Positions 8,882 through 57,550 of a DNA stretch of 64,000 nucleotides are shown here, piece after piece. Under the pieces are notes generated by a model. That model did no database searches. It was not told the DNA's origin and saw nothing but the letters and a program-made list of their open reading frames with translations. Numbering within the stretch: position 1 is the first letter of the stretch; every line of letters begins with the position of its first letter. A program made the position numbers and the translations under genes. Source of the DNA: Halarcobacter sp. (GTDB lineage Bacteria > Campylobacterota > Campylobacteria > Campylobacterales > Arcobacteraceae); assembly GCF_963675975.1 (NCBI RefSeq), contig NZ_OY780939.1:2604001-2668000 (forward strand). Direction: 5' to 3'.

Positions 8882-9526
8882 CTAACTCCAGATTTGTAAA
8901 GGGGGAGTATTTGCAACTGCTTTTAAAATATTTGCCCTTGAAACTATTCCTAAAAGATTATCATCTTGATCAACAATTGGAATTGCAGTTAAACTAAAAT
9001 CAACCATTACTTTTGCAACTCTTCTAATATCAGTTATTGGATCTGCTGCAATAACTTCTCCTAAATCAAAACTAGAAAGTGGTCTTCTTAAAGTTGCATT
9101 TACATATTCTAAATCATTTAGTATTGAATTTAAAATATGCTTTTGATTTACCATAGCAATTATTTTTCCATCTTCATTTGTATCTATAATAGGAATTTGT
9201 CTTATCTCTTTTTCTTCCATAAGATTATAAGCTTCTTGAAGAGTATTATCTTGATTTAATACAATAACTTCTCTTGTCATTAAATCTTTTACATGAAATA
9301 TTTGCTCAGAGGTATCAATATTTGCAATATTTCTATAGATTTGAGTAGCTTCTTCAACTTTATCATTTTCATAAAGTCTTTTTTTAGGTTTTGTTGAATG
9401 ATCTTTAGGCAGACCCTCATTTATATTGTTTCTAACCTTTGCAACAGAATCAACATTTGACATACTATAAAGATTGTCTACTGTACTTCTAAAACTAAGT
9501 CCATTGTTACTGTATATTGCAAACAT
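8882..9526 (-). CDS. Tandem CBS-domain protein
   Basis: 214 residues. A polar N-terminus (1-75) precedes two CBS motifs: about 80-140 (VKDLMTREVIVLNQDNTLQEAY, RQIPIIDTNEDGKIIAMV) and about 145-210 (TAIPIVDQDDNLLGIVSR). CBS pairs usually bind adenosyl nucleotides and gate a partner; no catalytic domain is present here, so it is a stand-alone sensor or regulator. A 23-nt gap separates it from the recombinase-like gene upstream. Confidence 0.8.
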   Translation of the reverse strand: MFAIYSNNGLSFRSTVDNLYSMSNVDSVAKVRNNINEGLPKDHSTKPKKRLYENDKVEEATQIYRNIANIDTSEQIFHVKDLMTREVIVLNQDNTLQEAYNLMEEKEIRQIPIIDTNEDGKIIAMVNQKHILNSILNDLEYVNATLRRPLSSFDLGEVIAADPITDIRRVAKVMVDFSLTAIPIVDQDDNLLGIVSRANILKAVANTPPLQIWS

Positions 9527-44875: not shown

Positions 44876-45175
44876 TTAAACCTTTTTGTATTTGTGTGTT
44901 AGTCTAACAAAATCGTAAAAATCACTTAACATCAAGTAACGTATTTGTATATCTTCAAATTTTTTATGAACTATTTCAATTCCTTCATTATAAAGTCTAA
45001 CATCCTCAACAAACTCATGGGGATATTCTAGTTTTTCCTCTTTTATTGTAGGAAAACACTCCATAAATTGAGCAAATAGTTTATTTACTGTTTCCTCTTG
45101 CTCTTTAGTTGGAGATTTTAAAAACCCTTTTAAAGTCTCAAACTCTTCACAAATCTCTACTAAACACTTGTGCAT
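44876..45175 (-). CDS. Hypothetical protein (99 aa)
   Basis: Helical, soluble; starts HKCLVEICEEFETLKGFL, no named motif. Overlaps the ArsC-like gene by 16 nt, so the two are translationally linked. Confidence 0.6.
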   Translation of the reverse strand: MHKCLVEICEEFETLKGFLKSPTKEQEETVNKLFAQFMECFPTIKEEKLEYPHEFVEDVRLYNEGIEIVHKKFEDIQIRYLMLSDFYDFVRLTHKYKKV

Positions 45176-45582
45176 GAATCACTGCTTTGACAAGTACCAA
45201 TCTCTTTTTTAGTATCTAACTCTTGATTTAAGGCACTGTTTAATTTAGGAATGTCAAAACCACATATTTTTGTATCATCAACTTGGATAAGTGGTCTTTT
45301 TATAAGAATTGGTTCTTTTATCATAAGTTCTACTAACTCATCTTTTGAATACTTTTCTATATTTATCTCGCCACTTTTAACTTGCGGGGCAAATTGATTT
45401 ATTATCTGATTTTTTTCTAAGCCCTCAAAAAAACTATTCAGTGTAGTAGTATCCCAGTTTGTTGAAAGCATCGATTTTACTTCAAACTCAATGCCATTTG
45501 CCATTAATAGCTCTTTTTGTTTTTTATTACCTGCACATCCGGGTTTTTCATAAAATGTAATACTCTTTTTTACATAAAACAT
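45160..45582 (-). CDS. ArsC/Spx-like thioredoxin-fold protein (nitrogenase-associated type)
   Basis: 140 residues: ITFYEKPGCAGNKKQKELL with the ArsC-like active-site cysteine, then EPILIKRPLIQVDDTKICGF (R-P-L motif). The C-terminus adds a Cys-containing tail (GTCQSSDSCTSV). Resembles the ArsC-related nitrogenase-associated family; no nif genes are in the window. Confidence 0.75.
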   Translation of the reverse strand: MFYVKKSITFYEKPGCAGNKKQKELLMANGIEFEVKSMLSTNWDTTTLNSFFEGLEKNQIINQFAPQVKSGEINIEKYSKDELVELMIKEPILIKRPLIQVDDTKICGFDIPKLNSALNQELDTKKEIGTCQSSDSCTSV

Positions 45583-45591
45583 TTTTGCTCC

Positions 45592-46155
45592 TTAATCCAT
45601 ATAGGGTATATCTAAATTTGCATCTCTATCACTAGCTGTAAAATCAAAACTTGTCTCAACGATAAGTTTAACAAGAGATTTTTCTATAACTTTTACTTGT
45701 AACTTATGATAATTGTTGTTTGAGATATTGTTCTCTATCTCCATTTTATAATATCCTAAAATAATAGGATGAATTTTTTCTTGATTTTTTAATAATTCAT
45801 CTAAAAAAAGTTTTAATTTAGAGATATCATATTCATCTATTTTTTTTAGTTTTCTAACCAAATTTCTAACAAATTGTTTTGGCTGGTAACCTTCACTCAT
45901 ATCTAATAACTTCGACGCTGCATAAAGGTCTGCATCTTGTGCTGAATAATTATATAGATACCTAAAATGGTCACAAACTAAATTTACATATTTTGGATAA
46001 TGTTTCAAAACAAAAACCAACTCTTTTAAGTCTCCATCAATCAATACTTGAAAAAGTGTAGCTGTTCTTTTCTCTATTTTATCCCAATGGTTTCCATCCT
46101 CTTTAAAATCACCAAGAAACCTATCGTATACGTTTAAATCATAATTTTCTTCCAT
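45592..46155 (-). CDS. Hypothetical protein, paralogue of the 55.6-56.3 kb MoxR-locus protein
   Basis: 187 residues. KIEKRTATLFQVLIDGDLKEL aligns with KIRNRTRMLFRSLVDDDFTEL, and EYDISKLKLFLDELL...ILGYY with EFDHSELKEYLEKII...ILDYY of the product at 55648-56349; the relation covers about 150 residues. No known domain. Lies 9 nt upstream of the ArsC-like gene, on the same strand. Confidence 0.65.
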   Translation of the reverse strand: MEENYDLNVYDRFLGDFKEDGNHWDKIEKRTATLFQVLIDGDLKELVFVLKHYPKYVNLVCDHFRYLYNYSAQDADLYAASKLLDMSEGYQPKQFVRNLVRKLKKIDEYDISKLKLFLDELLKNQEKIHPIILGYYKMEIENNISNNNYHKLQVKVIEKSLVKLIVETSFDFTASDRDANLDIPYMD

Positions 46156-46243
46156 AAAATTGTATATGCAATAATCATACCTTTTATTGATAGTGGTATA
46201 GAAATTGTATATAATACCCTTTCGAATTATAAAAAGGTTAATT

Positions 46244-47431
46244 ATGCTATCAAAATATTCATTTGGAACTTACAGAACAACATATCAAAATCCCCTACAT
46301 AAAGAAGCTCTAGCATTTGCACTTGACAATGGTATCACACATATTGATACCTCTTCAAACTATATGCATGGTGAAGCAGAGATTTTAATAGGACAAATGT
46401 TAGAAAATAGAAATAGAGAAGATTTTACAATTGTTACTAAAGGTGGTTACATACAAGGTGAACTTTTAAAACAAGCTCAAAATGGATATGAGATTGATGA
46501 GTTGGTTAAATACGACCAAGATTGTTATCACTCAATCTCTCAATCGTTTATAGACCAAGAGATTCACAATAGTTTAAAAAGACTAAAAACAGACTATATT
46601 GATGTTTATTTACTTCACAATCCAGAGTATTACCTGATGAAAGAGATTAAAGCAGGTATGAGTGAAGAGCAGATTTTACACCATCACAAAATCATGCAAG
46701 TAAGAATCAAAAATGCTTTTGCCCTACTTGAACAAAGAGTAAAAGATGGGAAAATAAAAGCTTATGGTATCAGTTCAAACTCATTTTCAAAAAAAAGAAG
46801 TGATATTCACTTTTTAGAATATAAACATCTAATTGGTTACGCAAAAGAGTTAGCAGGAGAAAACCATAACTTTAAAGTAATACAACTTCCTATGAATATG
46901 TTTGAACACGATGGAATCAATGCAGCCAAATGGGCACACGAAAATGGTCTAGAAGTTCATGTAAACAGACCCCTAAATGCTATTTATAAAGATGATATGA
47001 TAAGACTTGCAAGTTATAGTGAGTGTATCAATTATGACACTCTTTTAAGTCAAGTAAGAGAGATACCAAATGATGCTTTCCAAGAAGCTTTAGAACAACT
47101 TCTAGGTATAGAAAATGAATACAGATGGGCAGGAGATGTGGATGATATAGTTGAGTATCAAGTTATCCCGTATATTGTAAATACAATCCAACTAGACCCT
47201 ATATATTTCCAACTAGTTGATAACTTTTTAGATGGTTATAAAAACAATGTAAAATCAAAAATCTCTAAAAAAGTTAGTGAAGAGTTAGAGATAAAAGAGC
47301 CTATAGATTTATATGCTTTAAAATACTTAGAAGAGCAAGAGTTTGTTACAAGAATACTTGTGGGTATGAGGGATAAGAGGTATGTTCAAAAGGTGTTGGC
47401 TTATAATGGTGTAGAGGTGAAGAAAAAATAG
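46244..47431 (+). CDS. Aldo/keto reductase
   Basis: 395 residues from ATG 46244 (AAAGG upstream; ATG 46205 would add 13 residues with no ribosome site). FALDNGITHIDTSSNYMHGEAE (catalytic Asp/Tyr region), TKGGYIQGE, KRLKTDYIDVYLLHNP, and C-terminal RILVGMRDKRYVQKVL. Longer than common family members, with an inserted helical segment. Last gene before the cassette-like array. Confidence 0.85.
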   Translation: MLSKYSFGTYRTTYQNPLHKEALAFALDNGITHIDTSSNYMHGEAEILIGQMLENRNREDFTIVTKGGYIQGELLKQAQNGYEIDELVKYDQDCYHSISQSFIDQEIHNSLKRLKTDYIDVYLLHNPEYYLMKEIKAGMSEEQILHHHKIMQVRIKNAFALLEQRVKDGKIKAYGISSNSFSKKRSDIHFLEYKHLIGYAKELAGENHNFKVIQLPMNMFEHDGINAAKWAHENGLEVHVNRPLNAIYKDDMIRLASYSECINYDTLLSQVREIPNDAFQEALEQLLGIENEYRWAGDVDDIVEYQVIPYIVNTIQLDPIYFQLVDNFLDGYKNNVKSKISKKVSEELEIKEPIDLYALKYLEEQEFVTRILVGMRDKRYVQKVLAYNGVEVKKK

Positions 47432-47592
47432 ATTTTTTATTTTTTATTTGTTGATTTAAAAAGGTTTTTGAGTATAAAGAATTAATTAAAATGCAAAAAG
47501 ATACAACTTTATTTAAAGATATTCTATTTTTTGATGTTTTTGAATAAATATAGCTAAATATACTCTTACTATAATAAATAATAAATAATTGG

Positions 47593-47639
47593 ATTTAAGT
47601 ACTTTATTTATATAATATACATTCAATAAATAGTTATGA
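47593..47639 (+). repeat. Promoter-like repeat, copy A
   Basis: ATTTAAGTACTTTATTTATA followed by TAATATACATTCAATAAATAGTTAT. Contains a TATAAT-type -10. Nearly identical copies precede units 4, 7 and (more diverged) 6. Homology with copy C extends upstream to about 47455. Confidence 0.8.
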
Positions 47640-48018
47640 TAATAATCGTGCAGTTATTTGAGAAACACAAAATAAGAATTTTATTAATTTACAATATGAT
47701 CAGTATAATTTTGTTATTGATTATATCTCGAGGGAGATCTATTATTTACGCAAGTGGCCCGGCAGGGTTGGTAGAAGGCTTAATTAAAATACTCGTCGTA
47801 ATATTTGCATTTTTTCTATTGATATGAAGTTTGACATTAAGCATACTTACTTACTCTTCTATTGCTTAATGGAATAATGAGTTTTGACGCTTGTAATAAT
47901 AATTACAGGTATTGCCGAAATTGGACAATTTATATTCAATAATTTGGTCTCAGCTGCATGTACCAATTTAACATTAATTGATATAAGTCAAGAAAGAAGC
48001 AGAATATATGAAACCTAA
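47636..48018 (+). pseudogene. Decayed small membrane protein gene (possibly VanZ-like), cassette unit 1
   Basis: An ATG at 47636 gives 63 residues with two hydrophobic stretches ending at 47827. A second frame from 47824 (MKFDIKHTYLLFYCLME) hits two adjacent stops at 47875-47880, then continues VLTLVIIITGIAEIGQFIF to a TAA at 48016-48018 that lies inside the unit end ACCTAAC. GIAEIGQFIF and the later LTLIDI faintly recall VanZ. A frameshifted, stop-interrupted gene is the likely reading; the family call is weak. Confidence 0.35.
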
Positions 48019-48084
48019 CAAATCAAAGGAGATCAATCAAAAACTCGCGGGCGGCTTTTTGATTGCTCATTTTAAATGTTATCT
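48013..48084 (+). repeat. attC-like recombination site, unit 1/2 junction
   Basis: 72 bp from ACCTAAC (fits RYYYAAC) to GTTATCT. The inner part folds on itself: ATCAATCAAAAAC at 48032-48044 pairs with GCTTTTTGATTGCT around a short GC-rich loop (TCGCGGGCG), with an offset of extra bases toward the ends as in attC bulges. Size is within the 57-141 bp range known for attC. Confidence 0.65.
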
Positions 48085-48136
48085 TAATTTTAGAAAACTA
48101 AATTTTACAAAATTTGATATATATTAGAGGGACTTT

Positions 48137-48826
48137 ATGCAAAAAGATATGCTTAATTTTTTAAATAATGAATTTTATAAAACAATGATTAAAAATAGAG
48201 GTGTAAGAGGTTTTCCTTTTTCAATTAAAAGTTTTTTTGCAATACTTGGCTCAGTATTTTTATTTTCTATAGTATTAAATAACATTTCTGAATTTTGTTT
48301 AGAATACGAGACAAGAAAAGCTCCTTTCTATATACTTTTATCTTTATTTATATTGTCAGGTGTGTATTTATTGATTAAAAGTTTTATTCCAATATACTTT
48401 TATTTTATAAGTAAATCATGGATTAAAATTATTGCAAATATTAATGATATTTACATTTCAGAGGTGAGGTTTGTTTATTCAATAATGAACGGTTATAATG
48501 TTTGGCATCCAAAAATTAATTATAGTTTTAAAGTTAATGGAACTATCTATAAAGGGAATAGATTATCCTTTGAAAATGAAAAGTTTGAATATAAATTAGA
48601 TCCTAACAGTAGTTCTAGATATCATAAGCCTAATTTTGATTTTGGGAATTGGGTCGAAACAAAAAAAGTTGAAATTTATTACAATCCTAAAAACCCTAAT
48701 CAATCAGTTATTTACAGAAAATTGAATGTGTTTAGTTTTATTGTTTATTCATTTATAGCTATTTTATTTTTATTAGTTTTTAGTACAATTTTTTTAAAAT
48801 TTATCTATTATTGCTATATAGTTTAG
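48137..48826 (+). CDS. DUF3592 membrane protein, cassette unit 2
   Basis: 229 residues. Two membrane helices near 27-47 and 65-90, a soluble beta-rich domain with INYSFKVNGTIYKGNRLSF and VEIYYNPKNPNQSVIYRKL (DUF3592 pattern), and a C-terminal helix. Function unknown. Preceded by GAGGG ribosome site. Confidence 0.75.
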   Translation: MQKDMLNFLNNEFYKTMIKNRGVRGFPFSIKSFFAILGSVFLFSIVLNNISEFCLEYETRKAPFYILLSLFILSGVYLLIKSFIPIYFYFISKSWIKIIANINDIYISEVRFVYSIMNGYNVWHPKINYSFKVNGTIYKGNRLSFENEKFEYKLDPNSSSRYHKPNFDFGNWVETKKVEIYYNPKNPNQSVIYRKLNVFSFIVYSFIAILFLLVFSTIFLKFIYYCYIV

Positions 48827-48840
48827 AAAAAGGATTTAAG

Positions 48841-48949
48841 TGATAATAAACTACACTCCACTGGGATTTAATTTTCACTCACATTTCAAATCAGTGAAGC
48901 CAGTAAAATTACCCTGCACTAACTTATGGGCTCATTTCAAACGTTAGTC
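48841..48949 (+). repeat. Candidate recombination site, unit 2/3 junction
   Basis: 109 bp from TGATAAT to GTTAGTC. The 3' half contains CACTAAC and GGGCTCATTTCAAACGTTAG, resembling the right end of site 1 (GCTCATTTTAAATGTTAT). Internal complementarity TTCACT/AGTGAA (around 48875-48897). Left boundary is weak. Confidence 0.45.
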
Positions 48950-48965
48950 TATAAAAAGAGAAAAA

Positions 48966-49514
48966 ATGGCAATAAAAATATTTTACTTAATTATTCTGTA
49001 TTCATTGTTTTCATTTATTATTTATTATATTACAGATTTTAGATTGAGAGAAAACTTTAATCATATTGTATTAATTATTGAAATTTTTATAGTTTTTCTT
49101 TTTTCTATATTTTTATGGATCAATATAAAGAATAGAAATATTAAGTATATGATAGATTCAGTCAGCTCATTTTTTGGATATGCTGGTGTGATTATGATAT
49201 TTTTTGGATTATTGCATTTTTCACTCATCTATCCTACGGCTTTTTTGATGCATAAACTAATTGAGCAACCTTTTAAAGAAAAGTTTGTAGTGGTAAATAA
49301 GAATATAGGTGCTTATCAATCTCCATGCACTTTCAAAATTGAATTAAAAAATAAAGACATATCAACAATAGCTTGTGTATCACAAGGAGCCTATAAAAAA
49401 ATCAAATTGAAAGACCAAGCTATAGTTGAAGGTTATAAGTCATTCTTTGGTTCTATTGTTAACAAAGTAAAAATTGACCATAAAACTAACAAAACAGTGG
49501 AGCCAATAAATTAA
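48966..49514 (+). CDS. Membrane protein of unknown function, cassette unit 3
   Basis: 182 residues: about four hydrophobic segments in residues 3-100, then a soluble tail (TFKIELKNKDISTIACVSQG). No family recognised. Good AGAGAAAA ribosome site. The unit's end motif AACTAAC (49484-49490) lies within its last codons. Confidence 0.65.
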   Translation: MAIKIFYLIILYSLFSFIIYYITDFRLRENFNHIVLIIEIFIVFLFSIFLWINIKNRNIKYMIDSVSSFFGYAGVIMIFFGLLHFSLIYPTAFLMHKLIEQPFKEKFVVVNKNIGAYQSPCTFKIELKNKDISTIACVSQGAYKKIKLKDQAIVEGYKSFFGSIVNKVKIDHKTNKTVEPIN

Positions 49515-49681
49515 ACTTTTATAATAATCGTCAGTTTCACACCAGTTTAAATAAAATGATACTAAAAAATACAATGAGTCATTATATCAAGTAATTTTTT
49601 ACTTTTAACATACATTATTTATATTAAAGTGCTAAGTATCAATATAAAATAAACTCTTTTAAAAATATAATAAATAACTAT

Positions 49682-49728
49682 ATTTAAGTACTTTATTTAT
49701 ATAATATATATTCAATTAATAGTTATAC
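49682..49728 (+). repeat. Promoter-like repeat, copy B
   Basis: ATTTAAGTACTTTATTTATA plus TAATATATATTCAATTAATAGTTATAC; differs from copy A at only a few bases and ends in the unit 4 start GTTATAC. Confidence 0.8.
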
Positions 49729-49740
49729 GGAGAGGAAAAT

Positions 49741-50292
49741 ATGAATAGAAAATCAATACTTTTACTTTTAATTTTTGCAATATCAGTTTTTGGTCAAAAC
49801 TTAAAAGATGAAAATTTAATGCAAGGGATACCGAAAGGTTTTAAACTTGGATTTAAAGATTATAATAAGAAAACTCATATTAGTTTAATTGAGTTTATTC
49901 CTAAAGGTGAAACTGTACAAAATTGGTCACAAATGATTACAACTAATATTTATCATAGAAATATTAACTTATCAGCAAAAGAGTATATTCAATATATGAA
50001 TTCTTCATGGAAGAAAAGTTGTCAAGACAACTATACAAAATTTTTACCAGATGGGAAAGAAAATGGTTATGAATATGCACTATTTATGGCATATTGTAAA
50101 AAAAATAAAATGACAAATAAAGAAGAATTTACATATTTCAAAGCTATTAAAGGAAATGATAGTTTTTATGTTGTACAAAAAGCTTTTTCATACAGTCCTA
50201 CAAAAGAAGAAGTTATTGCATCGATGAAATATCTACAAAATGTATTCATATGTGATACAAGACTGGATAATTGTCCGAAAGTAGTTAAGTAG
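49741..50292 (+). CDS. Secreted protein of unknown function, cassette unit 4
   Basis: 183 residues with signal peptide (ILLLLIFAISVFGQ). The mature part contains KGFKLGFKDYNKKTHISLIEF, FIPKGETVQNWSQMITTNI and paired cysteines near the C-terminus (FICDTRLDNCPK). The ETVQNWSQM pattern is reminiscent of uncharacterised secreted proteins in other proteobacteria. GGAGAGG ribosome site. Stop codon overlaps GTATAAC. Confidence 0.7.
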   Translation: MNRKSILLLLIFAISVFGQNLKDENLMQGIPKGFKLGFKDYNKKTHISLIEFIPKGETVQNWSQMITTNIYHRNINLSAKEYIQYMNSSWKKSCQDNYTKFLPDGKENGYEYALFMAYCKKNKMTNKEEFTYFKAIKGNDSFYVVQKAFSYSPTKEEVIASMKYLQNVFICDTRLDNCPKVVK

Positions 50293-50425
50293 TATAACAA
50301 AACCTTGTAAAGAAAAAACAAAAGTATACTGCGGATAATTTAAACTTTTTAGAACAAAAAGCTAAAATGAAAACTGAAACAATCAAGTGGACTTGTAACC
50401 TTGTTTTTAAAGTCCAACGTTATGT
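50292..50425 (+). repeat. 134-bp junction element, unit 4/5 (attC-like)
   Basis: From GTATAAC to GTTATGT. It is homologous to the element at 52088-52221 and has exactly the same length: TAACAAA, then AAAGAAAAA, AGTATACT, GCG, TTTAAACT and AATCAAGTG occur in the same order. Its 3' end AAAGTCCAACGTTATG is attC-like. Confidence 0.6.
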
Positions 50426-50439
50426 ATAAGAAATAGAAT

Positions 50440-50784
50440 ATGAACAAAAAAATTTCAGAATTTATACCTTTTACAATGTCTTTTCTAAGTGGAGTGATAT
50501 TCTTTAATTGGAAAAGTGAGTGGATTGATAATATACAAGTCAATTTTATATTGATGGCATTAACTGTTATTATATTTTTGACATTAAGTATAATCTATGG
50601 AAACTTTCATATCAAAAAACACGGTAAGAATATTGTTATATGGCTAGGAGTTACTTTATCAAGTTTACTTGCCTTAATACAGGTATTTATTTTATTTATG
50701 GGAAGTATGGTACGGTATCTTCTAAAAGATACGAAGAGATTAATCAAAAAAGTGTCAGATACTATTTTACATAACATCATATAA
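50440..50784 (+). CDS. Small membrane protein, cassette unit 5
   Basis: 114 residues, three membrane helices (about 10-22, 33-52, 64-87), basic tail KDTKRLIKKVSDTILHN. Unknown family. The final codons contain the unit end ACATAAC and the repeat AAAAAAGTGTCAGA. Confidence 0.6.
   Translation: MNKKISEFIPFTMSFLSGVIFFNWKSEWIDNIQVNFILMALTVIIFLTLSIIYGNFHIKKHGKNIVIWLGVTLSSLLALIQVFILFMGSMVRYLLKDTKRLIKKVSDTILHNII
50742..50768 (+). repeat. 27-nt dispersed repeat, copy 1
   Basis: AATCAAAAAAGTGTCAGA followed by TACTATTTT; 25 of 27 bases match the copy at 52389-52415. The core resembles half of the palindrome GTGTCAGACAC. Confidence 0.6.
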
Positions 50785-50822
50785 TTTTTACTATCTTATT
50801 AGAAAAACATAATATAATTTTA

Positions 50823-50865
50823 AATATTATTTATATATAATATATTAGATAATTAATAGTTACAT
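50823..50865 (+). repeat. Promoter-like repeat, diverged copy D
   Basis: Contains ATATTATTTATATATAATAT and ends ATTAATAGTTACAT, matching copies A-C in order (T-rich, TATAAT-like, then ATAGTTA) but with more differences. Ends in the unit 6 start GTTACAT. Confidence 0.55.
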
Positions 50866-50881
50866 AAAGGAGACATAAGTA

Positions 50882-51313
50882 ATGGAAGAATATGAATATG
50901 CAGGTTTTTGGGTAAGGGTTGCAGCATCAATAATTGATACAATTATATTAGCAATGTTAACACTACCAATAACTATGATGATTTATGGTGATTCAATGTG
51001 GGAAAATGAATCTTTTATAATGGGACCAGCAGATTTTTTAATAAACTATGTTTTGCCAGCTCTTGCTGTAATATTATTTTGGCTTTATAAATCTGCAACT
51101 CCAGGGAAAATGATTCTTAAATTAAAAGTTCTTAATTCAGAAGATGGACAAGCATTATCTGTTGGACAAGCCATTGTGAGATACTTAGGTTATTTTATAG
51201 CAATGATTCCACTTTTTATAGGAATTATTTGGGTAGGCTTTGATAAAAGAAAACAAGGTTGGCATGACAAATTAGCAAAAACAGTTGTTGTAAGAAACAA
51301 AAAAATAATGTAA
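50882..51313 (+). CDS. RDD family membrane protein, cassette unit 6
   Basis: 143 residues. YAGFWVRVAASIIDTIILAML (R and D of RDD), second helix near 55-72, SATPGKMILKLKVL, then IPLFIGIIWVGFDKRKQGWHDKLAKTVVV. RDD proteins are small membrane proteins, some acting in ion exchange. GGAG 11 nt upstream of ATG. Confidence 0.88.
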   Translation: MEEYEYAGFWVRVAASIIDTIILAMLTLPITMMIYGDSMWENESFIMGPADFLINYVLPALAVILFWLYKSATPGKMILKLKVLNSEDGQALSVGQAIVRYLGYFIAMIPLFIGIIWVGFDKRKQGWHDKLAKTVVVRNKKIM

Positions 51314-51380
51314 TATATAAAGTACAGAAAAAGGTTTTTGAGAAATAAATATATTTTAAAATGCCTACACTCTCTTTGAG

Positions 51381-51468
51381 AAAAAGCAACCAGACACGTT
51401 ATTGAAGTTAAAGTTCTCTACACATTTGTAATTCTTTTTTGCCTTCAAAACTCTGTGGGTTGCTTTTT
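51381..51468 (+). other. Long-loop hairpin within junction 6/7
   Basis: AAAAAGCAACC (51381-51391) and GGTTGCTTTTT (51458-51468) are perfectly complementary, with about 66 nt between them. The right arm continues into ATTTTACTTTTT, so it could terminate transcription. The same stretch is missing from the otherwise similar region upstream of unit 1, so it looks like an insertion. Confidence 0.5.
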
Positions 51469-51593
51469 ATTTTACTTTTTCCAATAAATAAGTAACTAGA
51501 AAAATCTTATTTTGGAGAATATCAAATAGTTTTGATGTTTTTTAATAAATATACCAAAATAACCTCTTACTACAATATATAATAAATAAGTGG

Positions 51594-51640
51594 ATTTAAG
51601 TATTTCATTTATATAATGTACATTCAATAAATAGTTAGAC
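51594..51640 (+). repeat. Promoter-like repeat, copy C
   Basis: ATTTAAGTATTTCATTTATA, then TAATGTACATTCAATAAATAGTTAGAC. Similarity to copy A extends about 60 bp upstream (TTTTGATGTTTTT-AATAAATATA) and again at AAAAAGGTTTTTGAG (51328). Confidence 0.8.
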
Positions 51641-51682
51641 ATCGTGTTGAAAATAGCAATTTTAAAAAGGAAAATAAATAAT

Positions 51683-52093
51683 ATGAAAGATTTTTATAGT
51701 ACACGATATTTTCCAAAAGATATGCATACTGCATTAGGGTTTGATTCTATTCAAGGATATCTTGAAATGGCACATTGGTATCATAAAGGATATGTTAAAT
51801 TTGCAGATAATCATAAAAATAAAGATGAACATTGGAGTATATTATTTATTTTAAATCAACTTGAAGATGAAGGTTATATAAAAACAGAATAGATTGAATA
51901 CAAAAATGAGGATAAAGAAGATTATTTGGAGTTAAAACAAATTTCTTTAACAACTTCTGGACATAAACTTTTGGATGAATTAAGAGAAAAAAGTAAACGA
52001 GGTCAATTAAAAAAAAGAGTTACAAATATAATTTGGACAATAACAACTGCAATTATTACTACATTGATAGTTTTAAAGATAAAAGGTGTCTAA
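51683..52093 (+). pseudogene. Winged-helix-like gene interrupted by an in-frame amber codon, cassette unit 7
   Basis: 69 codons from ATG 51683 (KDFYSTRYFPKD; FILNQLEDEGYIKTE) end at TAG 51890-51892; the same frame continues for 66 codons (ISLTTSGHKLLDELREKS, then a membrane helix TNIIWTITTAIITTLIVL) to TAA 52091-52093 inside the unit end GTCTAAC. The split domain looks like DUF2513-type winged helix (EDEGYI ... LTTSGHKLLD). Either a pseudogene, a sequencing error or a shorter functional product. Confidence 0.6.
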
Positions 52094-52221
52094 CAAATCA
52101 TTGGAAAGAAAAACGAGAGTATACTTGCGATTTTAAACTAATATTTTGTAAACTAAATTTAAAAGTAGGATTGAAGAATCAAGTGTAAAATGCTGAAATT
52201 ACAAACTTTTAAGTGTTGATT
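52088..52221 (+). repeat. 134-bp junction element, unit 7/8 (attC-like)
   Basis: From GTCTAAC (fits RYYYAAC) to GTTGATT. Same length as, and alignable with, the element at 50292-50425. The start TAACAAATCATTGG and mid-motif AGTATACTTGCG are shared. Overlaps the stop codon of unit 7. Confidence 0.6.
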
Positions 52222-52447
52222 AAACAGACATAAAAGATTAAAGGTTCAAATCATTTTGCCTACTTGTTCCTCAAGTTAACCATTATAGATAAGGAGAAAT
52301 CAGTGCCATTAACCTCTCAAAGAACAATTGGTACAGACTAAAAAGAAATTGAGTTGCAACTTACCTAATGAATATCACAATGCAATAAAATCAAAAAAGT
52401 GTCAGACTCTATTTTCATAAATAAAATAATTAGGAGTAAAATAAATA
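52222..52447 (+). other. 226-bp leader before the DUF262 pair
   Basis: No gene of normal size. A strong site AAGGAG at 52291 precedes a GTG (52303) that opens only 12 codons (PLTSQRTIGTD) and, after the stop, 8 more in frame (KEIELQLT), which looks like a gene remnant or leader peptide. It also holds the second 27-nt repeat. Confidence 0.35.
52389..52415 (+). repeat. 27-nt dispersed repeat, copy 2
   Basis: AATCAAAAAAGTGTCAGA followed by CTCTATTTT, two mismatches to 50742-50768. Located 33 nt before the DUF262 start. Confidence 0.6.
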
Positions 52448-53755
52448 ATGGCATTATTAAAAGATGAATTAGAAATTTCAAAAATAATAGATATACTTAA
52501 AATAAATTTAACTTTACCTTCATATCAAAGACCATATAGTTGGAGTATAAACTCTTGTAATACTTTATTTTTTGATATATATGAAGCATTTAATAGTGGT
52601 ATTGATGAATATCGTATTGGGACTATTATTTTACATAAAGAAAATTCTGGAAAATATAATATTGTTGATGGGCAACAAAGGCTTACTACATTATCAATTC
52701 TTCTTTATTCGTTAGGAAATATAAATCAAAAACTTTTAAAAGAAAAATATAGCAAACTTTCAAATAATGCAATTATTCTAAATTATAGAATTCTATCAAA
52801 ACGAATCAAGGAAATAGATGAAAGAAAAATCAAAAAATTTAAAGAATATCTTTTAAAGAAATGTACCATAGTAAAGATAGTCACAAATACAGAACAAGAA
52901 GCATTTCAATTTTTTGATTCACAAAATTCACGAGGAAAAGAACTTGCTCCTCATGATTTACTAAAATCTTACCATCTAAGAGAAATGAAAAATGAAAATG
53001 AAGAAGAAAAAATTAAAATTATTAATTGTTGGGAAAATATTAAACAAGAATATTTATATGATTTATTTAAAAACTATCTGTATCCATTAATAAATTGGTA
53101 TAAAAGAAAAGATGGTCTTGGTTATTCTTCAAGTAAAATTAATTATTTTAAAGGGATAAAAGGGGCAAATAATTATAATTATTCTATATATCACAAAGCT
53201 AGCAATTTATATATAGAACAAATCAATTCAAATGGAGTAAATGAATTAATTTCATCAAATTGCATTAATCAATTTCAATTAACACAACCCTTAATTGCAG
53301 GAAGAAGATTTTTTAATTATTCACTTCATTATGGAAAATTATTAGAGAAAATACAGGAGCAAATCAATCATTTACATGAAAAAAGTACAATTCCAAGTAA
53401 ACGCTCAGGTGACATCTATATTAAACAGTTATACGAATGCTCTTTATTATTCTATGCCGATAGATTTGGGCTTGAAAATTTAAGCTCTTACGTAATGCAT
53501 TTACTTTATTCATGGTGTTATTCATTACGATTAACGATGAATGCTGTATATCAGCAAACAATTAATAAATATGCAAAGGGCCAACATGATAGAGTAAATT
53601 TGGGGATTGATATGTTTACAAAAATAAATGAAATGTCAGACCCAGAAGAATTGAAAATGATTTTACTTACAAAGCCTGATATTCATAAAAATAATAAAAG
53701 TAAGTACAAAGCAATATATGAATTTATCTTTGACTGGAATGGATGGAAAAAATGA
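52448..53755 (+). CDS. DUF262 (GmrSD N-terminal type) protein, cassette unit 8
   Basis: 435 residues. LPSYQRPYSWSINSC near residue 25 and IVDGQQRLTTLSILLYSL near 75 are the DUF262 ParB/Srx-fold signature; AFQFFDSQNSRGKELAPHDLLKSYHL follows in two parts (FDSQNSRGKEL, PHDLLKSYHL). No HNH motif is visible in the C-terminal half. DUF262 domains are nucleotide-dependent nuclease parts of GmrSD/BrxU-type restriction systems. AGGAG 11 nt before ATG; coupled to the next gene. Confidence 0.85.
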   Translation: MALLKDELEISKIIDILKINLTLPSYQRPYSWSINSCNTLFFDIYEAFNSGIDEYRIGTIILHKENSGKYNIVDGQQRLTTLSILLYSLGNINQKLLKEKYSKLSNNAIILNYRILSKRIKEIDERKIKKFKEYLLKKCTIVKIVTNTEQEAFQFFDSQNSRGKELAPHDLLKSYHLREMKNENEEEKIKIINCWENIKQEYLYDLFKNYLYPLINWYKRKDGLGYSSSKINYFKGIKGANNYNYSIYHKASNLYIEQINSNGVNELISSNCINQFQLTQPLIAGRRFFNYSLHYGKLLEKIQEQINHLHEKSTIPSKRSGDIYIKQLYECSLLFYADRFGLENLSSYVMHLLYSWCYSLRLTMNAVYQQTINKYAKGQHDRVNLGIDMFTKINEMSDPEELKMILLTKPDIHKNNKSKYKAIYEFIFDWNGWKK

Positions 53756-55560
53756 CAGATGATTTAATTATAATTCCTGTCTCTGATATTTTTGTTAACA
53801 ATAACTATATTATACCGATTTATCAGCGTAATTATGCATGGCTTGAAGTACAAATTGAGCAGTTGATTGAGGATATTGAAAGCTCTATTTATAATAATGA
53901 CAAAAGCTATTTCTTAGGAAATTTGATTGTTAACCAAGCAAATAATAATTTATATCAAGTGATTGATGGTCAACAACGATTAACTACACTGTATCTTCTT
54001 CAAAAATATTTAGGCCTTGAATTTCCAAAAGAATCTTTACGATTTGAAGCACGTGAAAACTCAAATCGTACTCTTTCTTCAATCGGATCTGAAATTAATT
54101 ATTTAAGTGAAGAATTATTAACACAAGAAATTTTAACTGGATTTAAAATAATTGAAAATTATTTTAAAAATCAGACAATTAATAAAGATAATTTTCTTCA
54201 GAAATTAAAACAAGTATTTCTCATTCTAGTACAAGTTCCACAAAATATTGATCTAAATCATTACTTCGAAATTATGAATACTCGTGGAGAACAATTAGAA
54301 TTACATGAAATAGCTAAAGCTAAATTATTAGATGCACTTAAAAATAAAGATGATCAGACAATTGCATCAATGATTTGGGAAAAATGTTCAGATATAAATT
54401 CCTATGTACAAATGAATTTTGACATTAAAGTACGTAAAAAAATATTTACTGAAGATTGGAGTAGTATTCATAAATCAATCTCTGATTTTGATTCATTAAA
54501 AAATAGAATTTCAATAGATGATACATCAATGGATAAAAAATTATTACATGATATTCTAAAGGAAAATAAAATAATAGATAATTCTTCCATAAATTTTGAA
54601 TATGAAAATGAGCACTTTGAGTCAACTATTTCATTTCCTAACTTTTTATTGCAAGTAAATGCAGTTATCGAAAAATCAATTGAAGATGAAACTAGTCTTG
54701 ATGATAAATTTTTTCTTAAAAAACTATCATGGGCGTGGGAAACACCTACTAAAGCAAAAGAATTCATATTTAAATTATTAGAATGTCGGGTTTTATTTGA
54801 TAAATATATATTAAAACGTGAATTTGCTAGAGACTATAAAGAAACAGGAAAATGGTCATTACAACGTTTAGAGAAATATCATGATAATAAAAAAAATAGT
54901 GATAAACCTAAATATGTTGGAACTTTAGTAAATGAAGTAATTGATAATAAAAGACTAAGAACCCTTCAATCTTGCTTACGAATAACTTATACATCACCGA
55001 AAACTATGCATTGGATTACATTAGTTTTATCAAATTTATTAAAAAAAGAAGATACTAACATAACAATCTTATTAGAAAATTATTGTAAAAAGAAAGTTAA
55101 AAATTCTAATTATCAAAATAGTAGTGGTTTTGGAGTAAAACGAATTGTATTTACTTATCTAGATTATTTAATTTATCGAGATGGCTATTCTTTGTATAAC
55201 AAAAAAATTGTAGTATCCCTACAAGATGATTGGCAATTTCAATTTAGAAGTTCTATTGAGCATTTTCATCCTCAAAATCCGACAGAGATAAGATATTGGG
55301 AACAAGATGATCTAAACAGTTTTGGTAATTTAGCCTTAATAACAGTTTGGGGGAATTCGAAGTTTTCTAATTTACCACCTGTTGGTAAAATTAATTCTTA
55401 TCCCAGTATTATTAATCAAAGTCCAAAACTAATAATTATGGAAGAAATGACAAAATTTGATGATGAAGGATGGACAGAAGATAAGGCAAAAAAACATAAA
55501 AACGAAATGTTCACTATCCTCGATAATGAAATTAATAAAAGTTATAAGAATATAAGTTAG
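53752..55560 (+). CDS. DUF262-DUF1524 (GmrSD-like) protein with HNH motif, cassette unit 8
   Basis: 602 residues from ATG 53752, which forms ATGA with the upstream stop (ATG 53743 would add three residues). PIYQRNYAWLEVQIEQLI and VIDGQQRLTTLYLLQ mark DUF262; YFEIMNTRGEQLELHEIAK is the second DUF262 motif. The C-terminus has the DUF1524 HNH pattern: IEHFHPQNP (His504) and SFGNLALIT...GNSKFSNLPP. Together with the first protein it resembles a split GmrSD-type IV restriction or related anti-phage system; this role is inferred. Confidence 0.85.
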   Translation: MTDDLIIIPVSDIFVNNNYIIPIYQRNYAWLEVQIEQLIEDIESSIYNNDKSYFLGNLIVNQANNNLYQVIDGQQRLTTLYLLQKYLGLEFPKESLRFEARENSNRTLSSIGSEINYLSEELLTQEILTGFKIIENYFKNQTINKDNFLQKLKQVFLILVQVPQNIDLNHYFEIMNTRGEQLELHEIAKAKLLDALKNKDDQTIASMIWEKCSDINSYVQMNFDIKVRKKIFTEDWSSIHKSISDFDSLKNRISIDDTSMDKKLLHDILKENKIIDNSSINFEYENEHFESTISFPNFLLQVNAVIEKSIEDETSLDDKFFLKKLSWAWETPTKAKEFIFKLLECRVLFDKYILKREFARDYKETGKWSLQRLEKYHDNKKNSDKPKYVGTLVNEVIDNKRLRTLQSCLRITYTSPKTMHWITLVLSNLLKKEDTNITILLENYCKKKVKNSNYQNSSGFGVKRIVFTYLDYLIYRDGYSLYNKKIVVSLQDDWQFQFRSSIEHFHPQNPTEIRYWEQDDLNSFGNLALITVWGNSKFSNLPPVGKINSYPSIINQSPKLIIMEEMTKFDDEGWTEDKAKKHKNEMFTILDNEINKSYKNIS

Positions 55561-55605
55561 TAAAAATATGATAATTAATTGAACACACTACTATATAATC
55601 AACAG

Positions 55606-55634
55606 TTTAAGTGAGATTCTTTACCTCACTTAAA
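55606..55634. terminator. Bidirectional terminator after the DUF262 pair
   Basis: TTTAAGTGAG, loop ATTCTTTAC, CTCACTTAAA: perfect 10-bp stem between convergent genes, immediately after the last cassette end motif AATCAAC (55597-55603). Confidence 0.65.
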
Positions 55635-55647
55635 GTTTTAAAATCAT

Positions 55648-56349
55648 CTACCCTAACTTCCCCACTAACTTCTCCAACCCCTTCTTCTGCAAAATATGCA
55701 ACCCACAATCCTCTATCCACTCCATAGCTTTCTCTTGATAATAATCCAATATTATCTTATGAACAGATTCTTTTATACCTATAATCTTTTCCAAATACTC
55801 TTTTAACTCACTATGGTCAAATTCTTCAAAACTTTGAAGTTTGAAATATAAAGCTTCTAATAAACTATCGTCTATAAACTCTTTTGCTTTTTCTAAAAAC
55901 TTTGTTGCTTCTATTTCATCTGCAACTATGTCATTCCACTTTCTTCCTGTTTTTAACTGATCTATTGCCACAGGTAAAAATACTGGAACTAAATCTAATA
56001 CTTTGTTTAATTCAGTAAAATCATCATCAACTAAACTTCTAAAAAGCATCCTTGTTCTGTTTCTTATTTTTACTCTTAGATTATCGTTTTGGATTACATC
56101 ATTATGTAGTAGTTGAAATCTTTTTAGTGCTGGTAGTTTGGAGTGATTGAAAGCCATGATTGATACTAGGGGTTCTTTGTCGGCTATTTGTTCCTCCCTT
56201 GAGCCATTTGGTCTACAAAATGCCCAATAGAGTCTTGCTTCCATATCTTCGTGATTTAAATATTTTTCATCACCTAAGCTTTCAAAATCCTCTTCATCTT
56301 TTAGTAGTTCGACCTCATCTTTATAGGTCAAATTGAATAACTCTTCCAA
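55648..56349 (-). CDS. Unknown protein of the MoxR-VWA locus
   Basis: About 233 residues from TTG 56349 (GAGG 10 nt upstream; TTG 56358 is an alternative with poor spacing). Helical, acidic, no named domain: LYWAFCRPNGSREEQ, IRNRTRMLFRSLVDDDF, FDHSELKEYLEKII. Its start overlaps the VWA gene, and a paralogue is at 45592-46155. Probably the third partner of the ATPase-VWA pair. Confidence 0.7.
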   Translation of the reverse strand: MEELFNLTYKDEVELLKDEEDFESLGDEKYLNHEDMEARLYWAFCRPNGSREEQIADKEPLVSIMAFNHSKLPALKRFQLLHNDVIQNDNLRVKIRNRTRMLFRSLVDDDFTELNKVLDLVPVFLPVAIDQLKTGRKWNDIVADEIEATKFLEKAKEFIDDSLLEALYFKLQSFEEFDHSELKEYLEKIIGIKESVHKIILDYYQEKAMEWIEDCGLHILQKKGLEKLVGKLG

Positions 56350-57550
56350 ATCTTTCAAACCTCGTAATATTTTTCTTTTCGCTTACAACAAAAAGTGTTG
56401 TACAAACTAAAGCTTCAGTTATGTCAAACTCACCATCAGTTAAAACCATCAAAAGATTATCACTTTTTATATCACTTGACTTTTTTAAGTATCTAAGAAC
56501 CTCATCGAAGTCTGTTCCCCCATCACTTTTAGGAATAAACAAATCATCTTCAATCAAAGGATTAAAAGAATCAAAGTTTATAATATGCTCCTCTTTTACC
56601 TTTAAATCAAAAGGAAGTACAGTTACTTTGTACTCATAAAAACCATCACATACGTCTTTTACTACACCTAAGAACTTTTTGTATTCATCAAGTGTTACAC
56701 TAGAACTACTATCAAGGGCAATATAAACCTCTATAAGCTCATCACTTTTTTTACTTCCTGGAAGATAAAGCCCACTATGAATAAACCTTTTATTTGGCCT
56801 TTCATAAGTAGTTGTTTTTTCAAATAATGATGAGATAAGATACTCTTTTAACATATCTTGTAAAGATATCTCAGGCTTGATTAGAGTATCTATCTCTATT
56901 TGCATCCCAATATATTCTCTTGAAGTCTTTTTAGCTATTGATAAAGCTTGGATTATGATACCATCAAGTTTTTCTCTCTCACCTTCGTTGGTTTTCTCAT
57001 CATTAACCTCTTCTATATCCATTTTTGATTCATCATAGATATGTGCTTTTAAATCCCCTTTTTCATTTGGGGTTGTTTTTATCTCTTGCTCTTTTTTCTC
57101 TTCACTGCTTGAGTCTTCGTTTTCCTCTTCTTGATTCTCTTTATATAAAATCTCATAAACCTCTTCAACACACTTGTCTTTTAAATCTAAATCTAATACT
57201 TCATCAACAGGCATATTACCTACATTTGAGAAAGTTGACATAATAAGATTTACAACCAAATCACAAGCTTGATTCCAAAGCTTTTTCTCTCTAGTTTTTT
57301 GTCTATATGGGTGTTTTAAAACTATATGCAATAAAGCATGAGCATAAAGGTAAGTTATCTCTTCACTTGAATATCTTTCAAGCTTTTTTAAATCAATATG
57401 TATCTCACTACCATTTGTTTGGAAAGCAGAGTTTTTATTCTCTTGGTATATTGTAGGTATAGATAGTGCTAATACTGATAAAAAGGGATGGTTAAACAAA
57501 AAATTAATTCTAATTTTTTGAAAAACCTCATCATATGATGTACTCACCAT
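56321..57550 (-). CDS. DUF2201-type VWA-like protein with putative metallopeptidase N-domain
   Basis: About 409 residues (ATG 57550, GGAG upstream; ATG 57571 possible). N-terminal domain has TYLYAHALLHIVLKHPYR (HxxxH-like, DUF2201_N), a Glu/Lys-rich linker about 150-200, and a C-terminal VWA-like fold with MIDAS-type YIALDSSSSVT, SDGGTDFDEVL and MVLTDGEFD. Such proteins act with MoxR AAA ATPases as chaperone-like pairs. Overlaps moxR by 20 nt. Confidence 0.85.
   Translation of the reverse strand: MVSTSYDEVFQKIRINFLFNHPFLSVLALSIPTIYQENKNSAFQTNGSEIHIDLKKLERYSSEEITYLYAHALLHIVLKHPYRQKTREKKLWNQACDLVVNLIMSTFSNVGNMPVDEVLDLDLKDKCVEEVYEILYKENQEEENEDSSSEEKKEQEIKTTPNEKGDLKAHIYDESKMDIEEVNDEKTNEGEREKLDGIIIQALSIAKKTSREYIGMQIEIDTLIKPEISLQDMLKEYLISSLFEKTTTYERPNKRFIHSGLYLPGSKKSDELIEVYIALDSSSSVTLDEYKKFLGVVKDVCDGFYEYKVTVLPFDLKVKEEHIINFDSFNPLIEDDLFIPKSDGGTDFDEVLRYLKKSSDIKSDNLLMVLTDGEFDITEALVCTTLFVVSEKKNITRFERFGRVIQFDL

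What the first reader, a model, noticed from the sequence alone, without database searches (positions are those of the whole stretch)
52448..55560. Two-gene DUF262 pair as cassette cargo, candidate anti-phage system
The first protein has only a DUF262 domain, the second DUF262 plus an HNH-type DUF1524; they are coupled by ATGA. Both carry the DGQQR motif. Known GmrSD systems use these two domains to cut modified phage DNA. A split arrangement with a duplicated DUF262, carried as the terminal unit of a cassette-like array and bounded by GTTGATT/AATCAAC, is unusual.
Basis: partly seen in the sequence, partly recalled or inferred. Interest (0 to 1): 0.65.

Follow-up and report, generated by a model that had tools for sequence, protein, structure and literature searches.

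The report
TgvAB-like two-gene anti-phage restriction system
Two joined genes encode a matched pair of proteins that most likely cut chemically modified phage DNA; this is a new member of a recently described, widespread bacterial defence family rather than a new kind of system.

Summary
The pair is real: 52448-53755 (435 aa) and 53743-55560 (605 aa), overlapping by ATGA. Protein 1 is not DUF262 alone. It is GmrSD_N plus DUF7834. Protein 2 is GmrSD_N plus the His-Me nuclease GmrSD_C. All published GmrSD motifs are present.

The split layout is not unusual. Intact, adjacent A+B pairs occur at 65 of 80 genome loci examined. Over 92 pairs the gap never exceeds 15 nt and the A and B trees match (r=0.945). 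[quoted passage not shown] A Vibrio hsdM-hsdS-A-B-hsdR locus carries the named TgvB residues H571 and N602 and aligns with both window proteins over most of their length. I read the pair as a divergent TgvAB-type defence module, probably acquired horizontally.

The cassette claim holds only in part. The pair ends an intI-less array with attI-like repeats; intI lies about 476 kb away. The element before the pair does not fold like an attC, and GTTGATT/AATCAAC is not a supported boundary.

Verdict: new member of a known kind. Anti-phage activity is inferred, not shown.

The parts
52448..53755 (+). Gene A (TgvA-type): GmrSD_N (DUF262, aa 13-176) plus DUF7834 (aa 187-420); motifs Q27-R28, D74-G-Q-Q-R78, F156..N160; no nuclease domain
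   Evidence: Pfam 1.8e-31 and 3.2e-63; motif residues invariant in 44 aligned sequences; AlphaFold pLDDT 91, SspE Z 15.3, DndI 13.5, BrxU 7.8
53743..55560 (+). Gene B (TgvB-type): GmrSD_N (aa 14-196) plus His-Me/HNH GmrSD_C (aa 459-591); motifs Q28-R29, D75-G-Q-Q-R79, F175..N179, H507, N538
   Evidence: Pfam 2.1e-29 and 2.2e-13; motif residues invariant in 42 aligned sequences; H507-N538 spacing 31 equals TgvB H571-N602; Foldseek top hits DndI, SspE, BrxU
53743..53755 (+). Overlap of A and B: ATG at 53743 and a second ATG at 53752 forming ATGA with the stop of A (translational coupling inferred)
   Evidence: sequence; 67 of 92 homologous pairs overlap or abut, the rest are 1-15 nt apart
52088..52288 (+). 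Degenerate attC-like element upstream of the pair; its two ends resemble the attC beside intI, but it does not fold better than shuffles
   Evidence: 3' half match CTTGTTCCTCAAGTTAACCATTA at 52263; alignment by eye; z -0.15 against z -2.71 for the intI-locus attC
55606..55634 (.).
   Evidence: the scan lists it on the - strand; fold z -3.43
51530..51637 (+). attI-like repeat (third copy; others 47529-47636 and 49618-49725), related to the sequence beside intI
   Evidence: family D1; alignment

Best explanation
[quoted passage not shown] Proposed mechanism: protein B (DUF262 + His-Me nuclease) is the DNA-cutting subunit. Protein A (DUF262 + DUF7834, no nuclease) is its obligate partner, supplying a second nucleotide-binding/hydrolysing DUF262 module and a helical body. 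Together they recognise base-modified (probably sugar-hydroxymethylated or otherwise hypermodified) invading DNA, switch state with NTP binding and hydrolysis through the two DGQQR sites, and B cuts the DNA through H507/N538. Shown here: genes, domains, motifs, strict pairing, A/B co-evolution, homology to a TgvAB orthologue, predicted fold. Inferred from published relatives: need for both subunits, NTP dependence, cleavage of modified phage DNA. Unknown: which modification this clade recognises.
For: Domains. Motif residues invariant in 44 A-type and 42 B-type sequences. Homology to a Vibrio hsdM-hsdS-A-B-hsdR locus (Pfam), whose B has H571 and N602, the residues named for TgvB in PMC11411939 (section 9 read): A 26% over 388 aa, E 2e-24; B 25% over 619 aa, E 6e-31. 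That Vibrio A protein also has DUF7834 (2.2e-43). 92 intact adjacent pairs, gap at most 15 nt, mirror-tree r 0.945 against at most 0.253 in 1000 permutations. Immediate neighbours: Methylase_S 9 of 130 and HSDR_N 6 of 130. Nearest relatives sit beside GajB (L087), an mREase_IV/REase match (L090), DUF1016-type PDC-S02 (L096) and Mrr_cat (L031). Folds closest to SspE, DndI and BrxU. No full-length A homologue in 15 congeners, and best relatives in Firmicutes, fit lateral acquisition.
Against: No experiment. Identity to the TgvAB proxy is low (25-26%) and the window clade is far from it in both trees (tree distances 6.8-7.6), so the substrate may differ. The proxy is an unnamed Vibrio-genus genome, not V. 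cholerae VC1767/VC1766. In the window the neighbours are not defence genes and there is no type I RM operon. Neighbour enrichment is modest against distal genes of the same loci (Methylase_S 9/130 vs at most 1/86, p 0.044; HSDR_N p 0.16), and the distal genes also include defence families.
Confidence: 0.85

Rival explanations
1. The pair is a defence nuclease of the same fold but senses something other than hypermodified phage bases, for example a host-type mark such as phosphorothioate (as SspE/DndI), or acts mainly against plasmids.
For: Best structural matches are the phosphorothioate sensors SspE (Z 15.3) and DndI (Z 13.5), ahead of BrxU (Z 7.8). A single-chain DUF262-DUF1524 protein, PFLU4242, causes plasmid-dependent fitness cost in Pseudomonas (passages of PMC8544851). 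The window clade is distant from TgvAB.
Against: The genes next to the pair in the window are not a dnd/ssp operon (one search gave Pfam results for 8 neighbouring proteins; the genome was not searched for dnd/ssp). The two-gene layout with DUF7834 is that of TgvAB, for which protection is reported against phages with modified cytosines.
Confidence: 0.2
2. The pair is a genuine mobile integron cassette: integrase-excisable cargo bounded by attC sites.
For: IntI in the genome; attI-like repeats and attC-like elements upstream; same site holds variable contents in relatives, with attI-like sequence in three of them and an intI fragment in one; own-start/own-end 7-mers match exactly for 3 of 6 upstream cassettes.
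Against: No attC with a proper fold on either side (z -0.15 before the pair; only a terminator-like hairpin after it); the exact GTTGATT/AATCAAC match has about 10% chance probability; no second copy of the pair in an integron was looked for systematically.
Confidence: 0.25
3. Decaying or non-functional passenger: an acquired defence gene pair without expression or activity.
For: Last position in a degenerate array with a remnant gene just upstream (51644-51892); promoter scan no better than shuffles (41 vs 37.6); in 10 of 80 homologous loci one gene is interrupted, truncated or not found.
Against: Both window ORFs are intact and keep all motif residues.
Confidence: 0.15

Closest known systems
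TgvAB (V. cholerae VPI-2, VC1767/VC1766; PMC11411939)
   Same: Two adjacent genes; first DUF262 without nuclease, second DUF262 + DUF1524; QR, DGQQR, FxxxN and H..N motifs; the proxy A protein also carries DUF7834.
   Different: 25-26% identity to a Vibrio orthologue proxy; not embedded in a type I RM operon; sits at the end of an integron-like array; substrate untested.
GrwAB (V. cholerae WASA, PMC12137116)
   Same: Two-protein GmrSD system, both with DUF262, one with DUF1524; both required.
   Different: There the nuclease is the first gene and the partner has a long multi-domain C-terminus (as described in PMC12137116 and PMC12409362); here the nuclease is second and the partner is 435 aa with one C-terminal domain.
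Single-chain GmrSD enzymes (Eco94GmrSD, BrxU) and original two-subunit GmrS/GmrD
   Same: Same two Pfam domains and motifs; BrxU fold.
   Different: One chain, or one domain per subunit; here an extra nuclease-less DUF262 partner accompanies the nuclease.
SspE / DndI (phosphorothioate-sensing)
   Same: Closest solved folds for both proteins; weak sequence match to SspE.
   Different: Single protein acting with ssp/dnd modification genes (from the literature); none next to this pair.
PADLOC HEC-06 and Orf5 models
   Same: Best PADLOC hits for both proteins (4.6e-32; 3.7e-24), through the DUF262 region.
   Different: Those models describe single proteins of about 530-600 positions; the window pair matches them only in part.

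Membership tests
GmrSD-family type IV restriction enzymes | DUF262/GmrSD_N with QR, DGQQR, FxxxN | tested here: met
   Both proteins; residues invariant in alignments
GmrSD-family type IV restriction enzymes | DUF1524/GmrSD_C His-Me nuclease with catalytic His and metal-binding Asn | tested here: met
   PF07510 2.2e-13 in protein 2; H507 and N538
GmrSD-family type IV restriction enzymes | Cleaves modified but not unmodified DNA, NTP-dependent | not testable with these tools
   needs biochemistry or phage assays
TgvAB two-protein systems | Adjacent pair: nuclease-less DUF262 protein followed by DUF262+DUF1524 protein | tested here: met
   same pair intact at 65 of 80 genome loci
TgvAB two-protein systems | Homology of both proteins to TgvA and TgvB | tested here: met
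   Against an orthologue proxy with H571/N602 in an hsdM-hsdS-A-B-hsdR locus: E 2e-24 and 6e-31. The V. cholerae sequences themselves were not obtained
TgvAB two-protein systems | Embedded in a type I RM operon (origin of the name; the paper also counts homologues outside such operons) | tested here: not met
   Window neighbours are cassette genes and a convergent MoxR/VWA cluster; not treated as defining because PMC11411939 reports tgvAB alone far more often than the five-gene cluster
TgvAB two-protein systems | Both subunits needed for anti-phage activity | not testable with these tools
   supported only indirectly by strict pairing and matched trees
GrwAB | Nuclease protein encoded first, partner with extended multi-domain C-terminus | tested here: not met
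   nuclease is second; partner is 435 aa with one C-terminal domain
Original GmrS/GmrD pair | One single-domain protein each (GmrS DUF262, GmrD DUF1524) | tested here: not met
   second protein carries both domains
Integron gene cassette | attC at the 3' end of the gene unit, folding as a hairpin with R/L boxes | tested here: inconclusive
   Only a terminator-like hairpin follows the pair; AATCAAC/GTTGATT match has about 10% chance probability; element before the pair z -0.15
Integron gene cassette | Integron integrase in the genome and attI-like platform at the array | tested here: met
   IntI 401 bits, about 476 kb away; attI-like repeats

The most novel reading that the evidence does not exclude
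The window clade (with Neobacillus, Clostridium and pNY3A relatives) is a functionally distinct branch of two-protein GmrSD systems in which A, through DUF7834, sets the specificity, so that it senses a base modification different from that seen by TgvAB; and integrons in this genus capture and reshuffle such type IV restriction operons as two-gene cassettes.
Probability: 0.15. Interest if true: 0.55.

Novelty: new member of a known kind. Interest (0 to 1): 0.3.

Why it matters
It turns a vague 'DUF262 pair' into a member of a defined, widespread two-gene module (A with DUF7834, B with nuclease) whose partner protein has no agreed role. PMC11411939 leaves open why TgvB alone is not enough. The strict pairing, matched trees and DUF7834 assignment offer a handle: a compact, divergent pair for swapping A subunits between clades and testing whether A sets specificity. 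It also places such a module at an integron-like hotspot, outside the type I RM operons where TgvAB was first seen.

Tried and rejected
Naive attC scanner (R box + L box complementarity): hit rate in the window region and intI locus (9-10 per 10 kb) was only about 2-5 times that of five control regions of the same genome and did not single out true attCs; not used. Rfam found nothing in 45000-57000. NCBIfam had no model for either protein. Phage records: 5 weak partial matches only. Direct repeats in pNY3A around the pair (L031 9485 and 13977) were not pursued. Search for the V. cholerae TgvAB sequences in 227 Vibrio-genus genomes found no 4-Mb genome whose B has H571/N602; a 5.0-Mb genome's locus (L284/L297) was used as proxy. 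A paper search for integrons in this clade returned noise. No paper in the library holds DUF7834 or PF25202. Considered and rejected: 'unusual split arrangement'; GrwAB membership (gene order, partner architecture); GmrS/GmrD split (second protein has both domains). No PADLOC model named for TgvAB was seen among the hits shown.

Full report
WHAT IS THERE. Two + strand ORFs, 52448-53755 (435 aa, protein A) and 53743-55560 (605 aa, protein B), overlap; B can start at 53743 or at the ATG of the ATGA at 53752. Pfam: A = GmrSD_N (1.8e-31) plus DUF7834/PF25202 (3.2e-63, aa 187-420); B = GmrSD_N (2.1e-29) plus GmrSD_C (2.2e-13). These two genes are the only PF03235 matches in the genome.

MOTIFS. In A: Q27-R28, D74-G-Q-Q-R78, F156..N160; in B: Q28-R29, D75-G-Q-Q-R79, F175..N179, H507 and N538. 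All are invariant in alignments of 44 A-type and 42 B-type proteins. Profile comparison shows A and B share only the DUF262 part (207 columns, 99.8% probability), so A is a paralogous DUF262 protein with a different body.

A CONSERVED MODULE. Plasmid search: 1012 records match A, 868 of them over at least 80% of its length, 907 from Klebsiella; 968 match B. In the five plasmid loci opened, A and B are adjacent. The genome scan returned the 80 best loci. An intact adjacent pair (A over 1100 nt, B over 1500 nt) is present in 65 of 80. Of the other 15, by inspection, four run off the contig (L113, L123, L129, L158), one was excluded only by its called start codon (L133), and in ten one gene is split, truncated or not found (L088, L098, L099, L100, L112, L141, L145, L152, L155, L159). 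With 4 viral-contig loci, 5 plasmid loci, 15 + 2 Vibrio loci and the window this makes 92 pairs: 67 overlap or abut, 25 are 1-15 nt apart, none is further. A and B tree distances correlate at r = 0.945; 1000 permutations gave at most 0.253. Shared host phylogeny contributes to this, but the window's own clade mixes Neobacillus, Clostridium, IMG/VR contigs and the plasmid pNY3A in both trees.

COMPARISON WITH TgvAB. PMC11411939 (abstract, section 9 and passages read) describes TgvA (DUF262) and TgvB (DUF262 + DUF1524). Both are needed against Tevenvirinae; DGQQR mutants of either and H571A or N602A of TgvB abolish protection. I searched 227 Vibrio-genus genomes (19 with an A-type match at E 1e-30 or better, 43 with a B-type match at 1e-12 or better). 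One locus, L297, has HsdM, HsdS, A (470 aa), B (663 aa), HsdR in that order by Pfam, and its B has H571 and N602 exactly (read from L284, the same gene). This is the five-gene layout of VC1769-65, so I use it as a TgvAB orthologue proxy; it is not V. cholerae itself. Window A aligns to it at 26% over 388 aa (2e-24), window B at 25% over 619 aa (6e-31), and its A also has DUF7834 (2.2e-43). The window pair thus has TgvAB architecture but lies far from it in both trees. GrwAB (PMC12137116 passages; PMC12409362 passages) is another two-protein system with the opposite gene order and a longer partner.

FOLD. AlphaFold models are confident (A pLDDT 91, pTM 0.75; B pLDDT 87.8, pTM 0.69). Foldseek against PDB gives DndI, SspE and BrxU for both, BrxU only weakly. 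The aligner gives A: SspE Z 15.3, DndI 13.5, BrxU 7.8, then ParB-like folds near 5-6. A aligns to SspE 2-602 of 771, which suggests that DUF7834 corresponds to the helical middle of GmrSD enzymes without the nuclease domain (inference; large rmsd). BrxU is reported as an intertwined dimer that ATP converts to monomers (passages of PMC8565348). I infer that A/B may form the equivalent hetero-assembly.

DEFENCE CONTEXT. Of 130 immediate neighbours at 65 loci, the commonest Pfam families are Methylase_S (9), ResIII (8), SWI2_SNF2 (6) and HSDR_N (6). PADLOC likewise ranks type I specificity subunits first. Genes about 4 kb or more away in 43 of the same loci (86 proteins) show at most one Methylase_S (Fisher p 0.044 for Methylase_S, 0.16 for HSDR_N), yet still include MmeI, N6_Mtase and GajB, so these are defence-rich regions as a whole. 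Among the nearest relatives of the window pair, neighbours are GajB (L087), an mREase_IV/REase match (L090), DUF1016-type PDC-S02 (L096) and Mrr_cat (L031). No tested neighbour of L088, L089 or L098 matched PADLOC. In the window itself no neighbour is a defence gene.

ORIGIN. No full-length A homologue occurs in 15 congeneric genomes; their matches are partial DUF262 matches. The best relatives are Neobacillus niacini (72%), Clostridium moniliforme (70%, A split) and other Firmicutes. Lateral acquisition is likely.

THE 'CASSETTE' SETTING. The genome has one full integron integrase (TIGR02249, 401 bits) at 2179658-2180599, about 476 kb from the pair. Next to it lie an attI-like sequence and an attC that folds well (z -2.71). 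The window has three related attI-like repeats (47529, 49618, 51530) and attC 3'-half matches at 50400 and 52263. In congeners the same interval between the aldo/keto reductase gene and the MoxR-associated gene holds different genes. attI-like ends are present in three of the six congener regions fetched (G002, G007, G001) and a 72-codon intI fragment in one (G001). So the site is an old integron platform. GTTGATT lies inside the attC-like stretch. Whether the pair moved as a cassette is open.

CONCLUSION. The pair is most likely a functional TgvAB-type type IV restriction system, a new and divergent member of a known kind. What remains open is its target modification, the role of A, and whether integrase can move it.

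Noticed in passing
window 47529-47636, 49618-49725, 51530-51637: Three attI-like ~108-nt repeats in an array without intI; an integron array with several attI-like copies is odd and might provide repeated cassette promoters or insertion points.
   Followed up: partly
L078, L079, L080, L081, L082, L083 (same site in six congeners): The interval between the aldo/keto reductase gene and the MoxR-associated gene is a genus-wide hotspot with different gene contents; attI-like ends in G002, G007 and G001, and an intI N-terminal fragment (72 codons, 69% identity) in G001.
   Followed up: partly
L031 (CP079755.1, 'Klebsiella grimontii' pNY3A): GC 32% against 51% for a K. pneumoniae plasmid locus, and Firmicutes-looking genes nearby: the replicon may belong to a Firmicute and be mislabelled. 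AT-rich direct repeats at 9485 and 13977 flank a unit with the A+B pair.
   Followed up: no
L084 5681-14350 (Aliarcobacter cibarius plasmid pACIB): Tight four-gene row: PD-(D/E)XK nuclease, A, B, UvrD helicase with a PD-(D/E)XK match; possibly a larger compound system around an A+B pair.
   Followed up: no
L223-L226 (IMG/VR contigs of 174-180 kb): Large viral contigs encode a short match to the DUF262 N-terminus (residues 24-82, 33%); could be a phage-borne DUF262 fragment worth checking as a decoy or inhibitor.
   Followed up: no
L089 1503-2618: A second A-type gene (371 aa, DGQQR) without a B partner found in the same Neobacillus locus as an intact pair.
   Followed up: no
window 51644-51892: Short remnant ORF in the unit just before the pair (82 aa from a GTG; the downstream frame is interrupted).
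   Followed up: no
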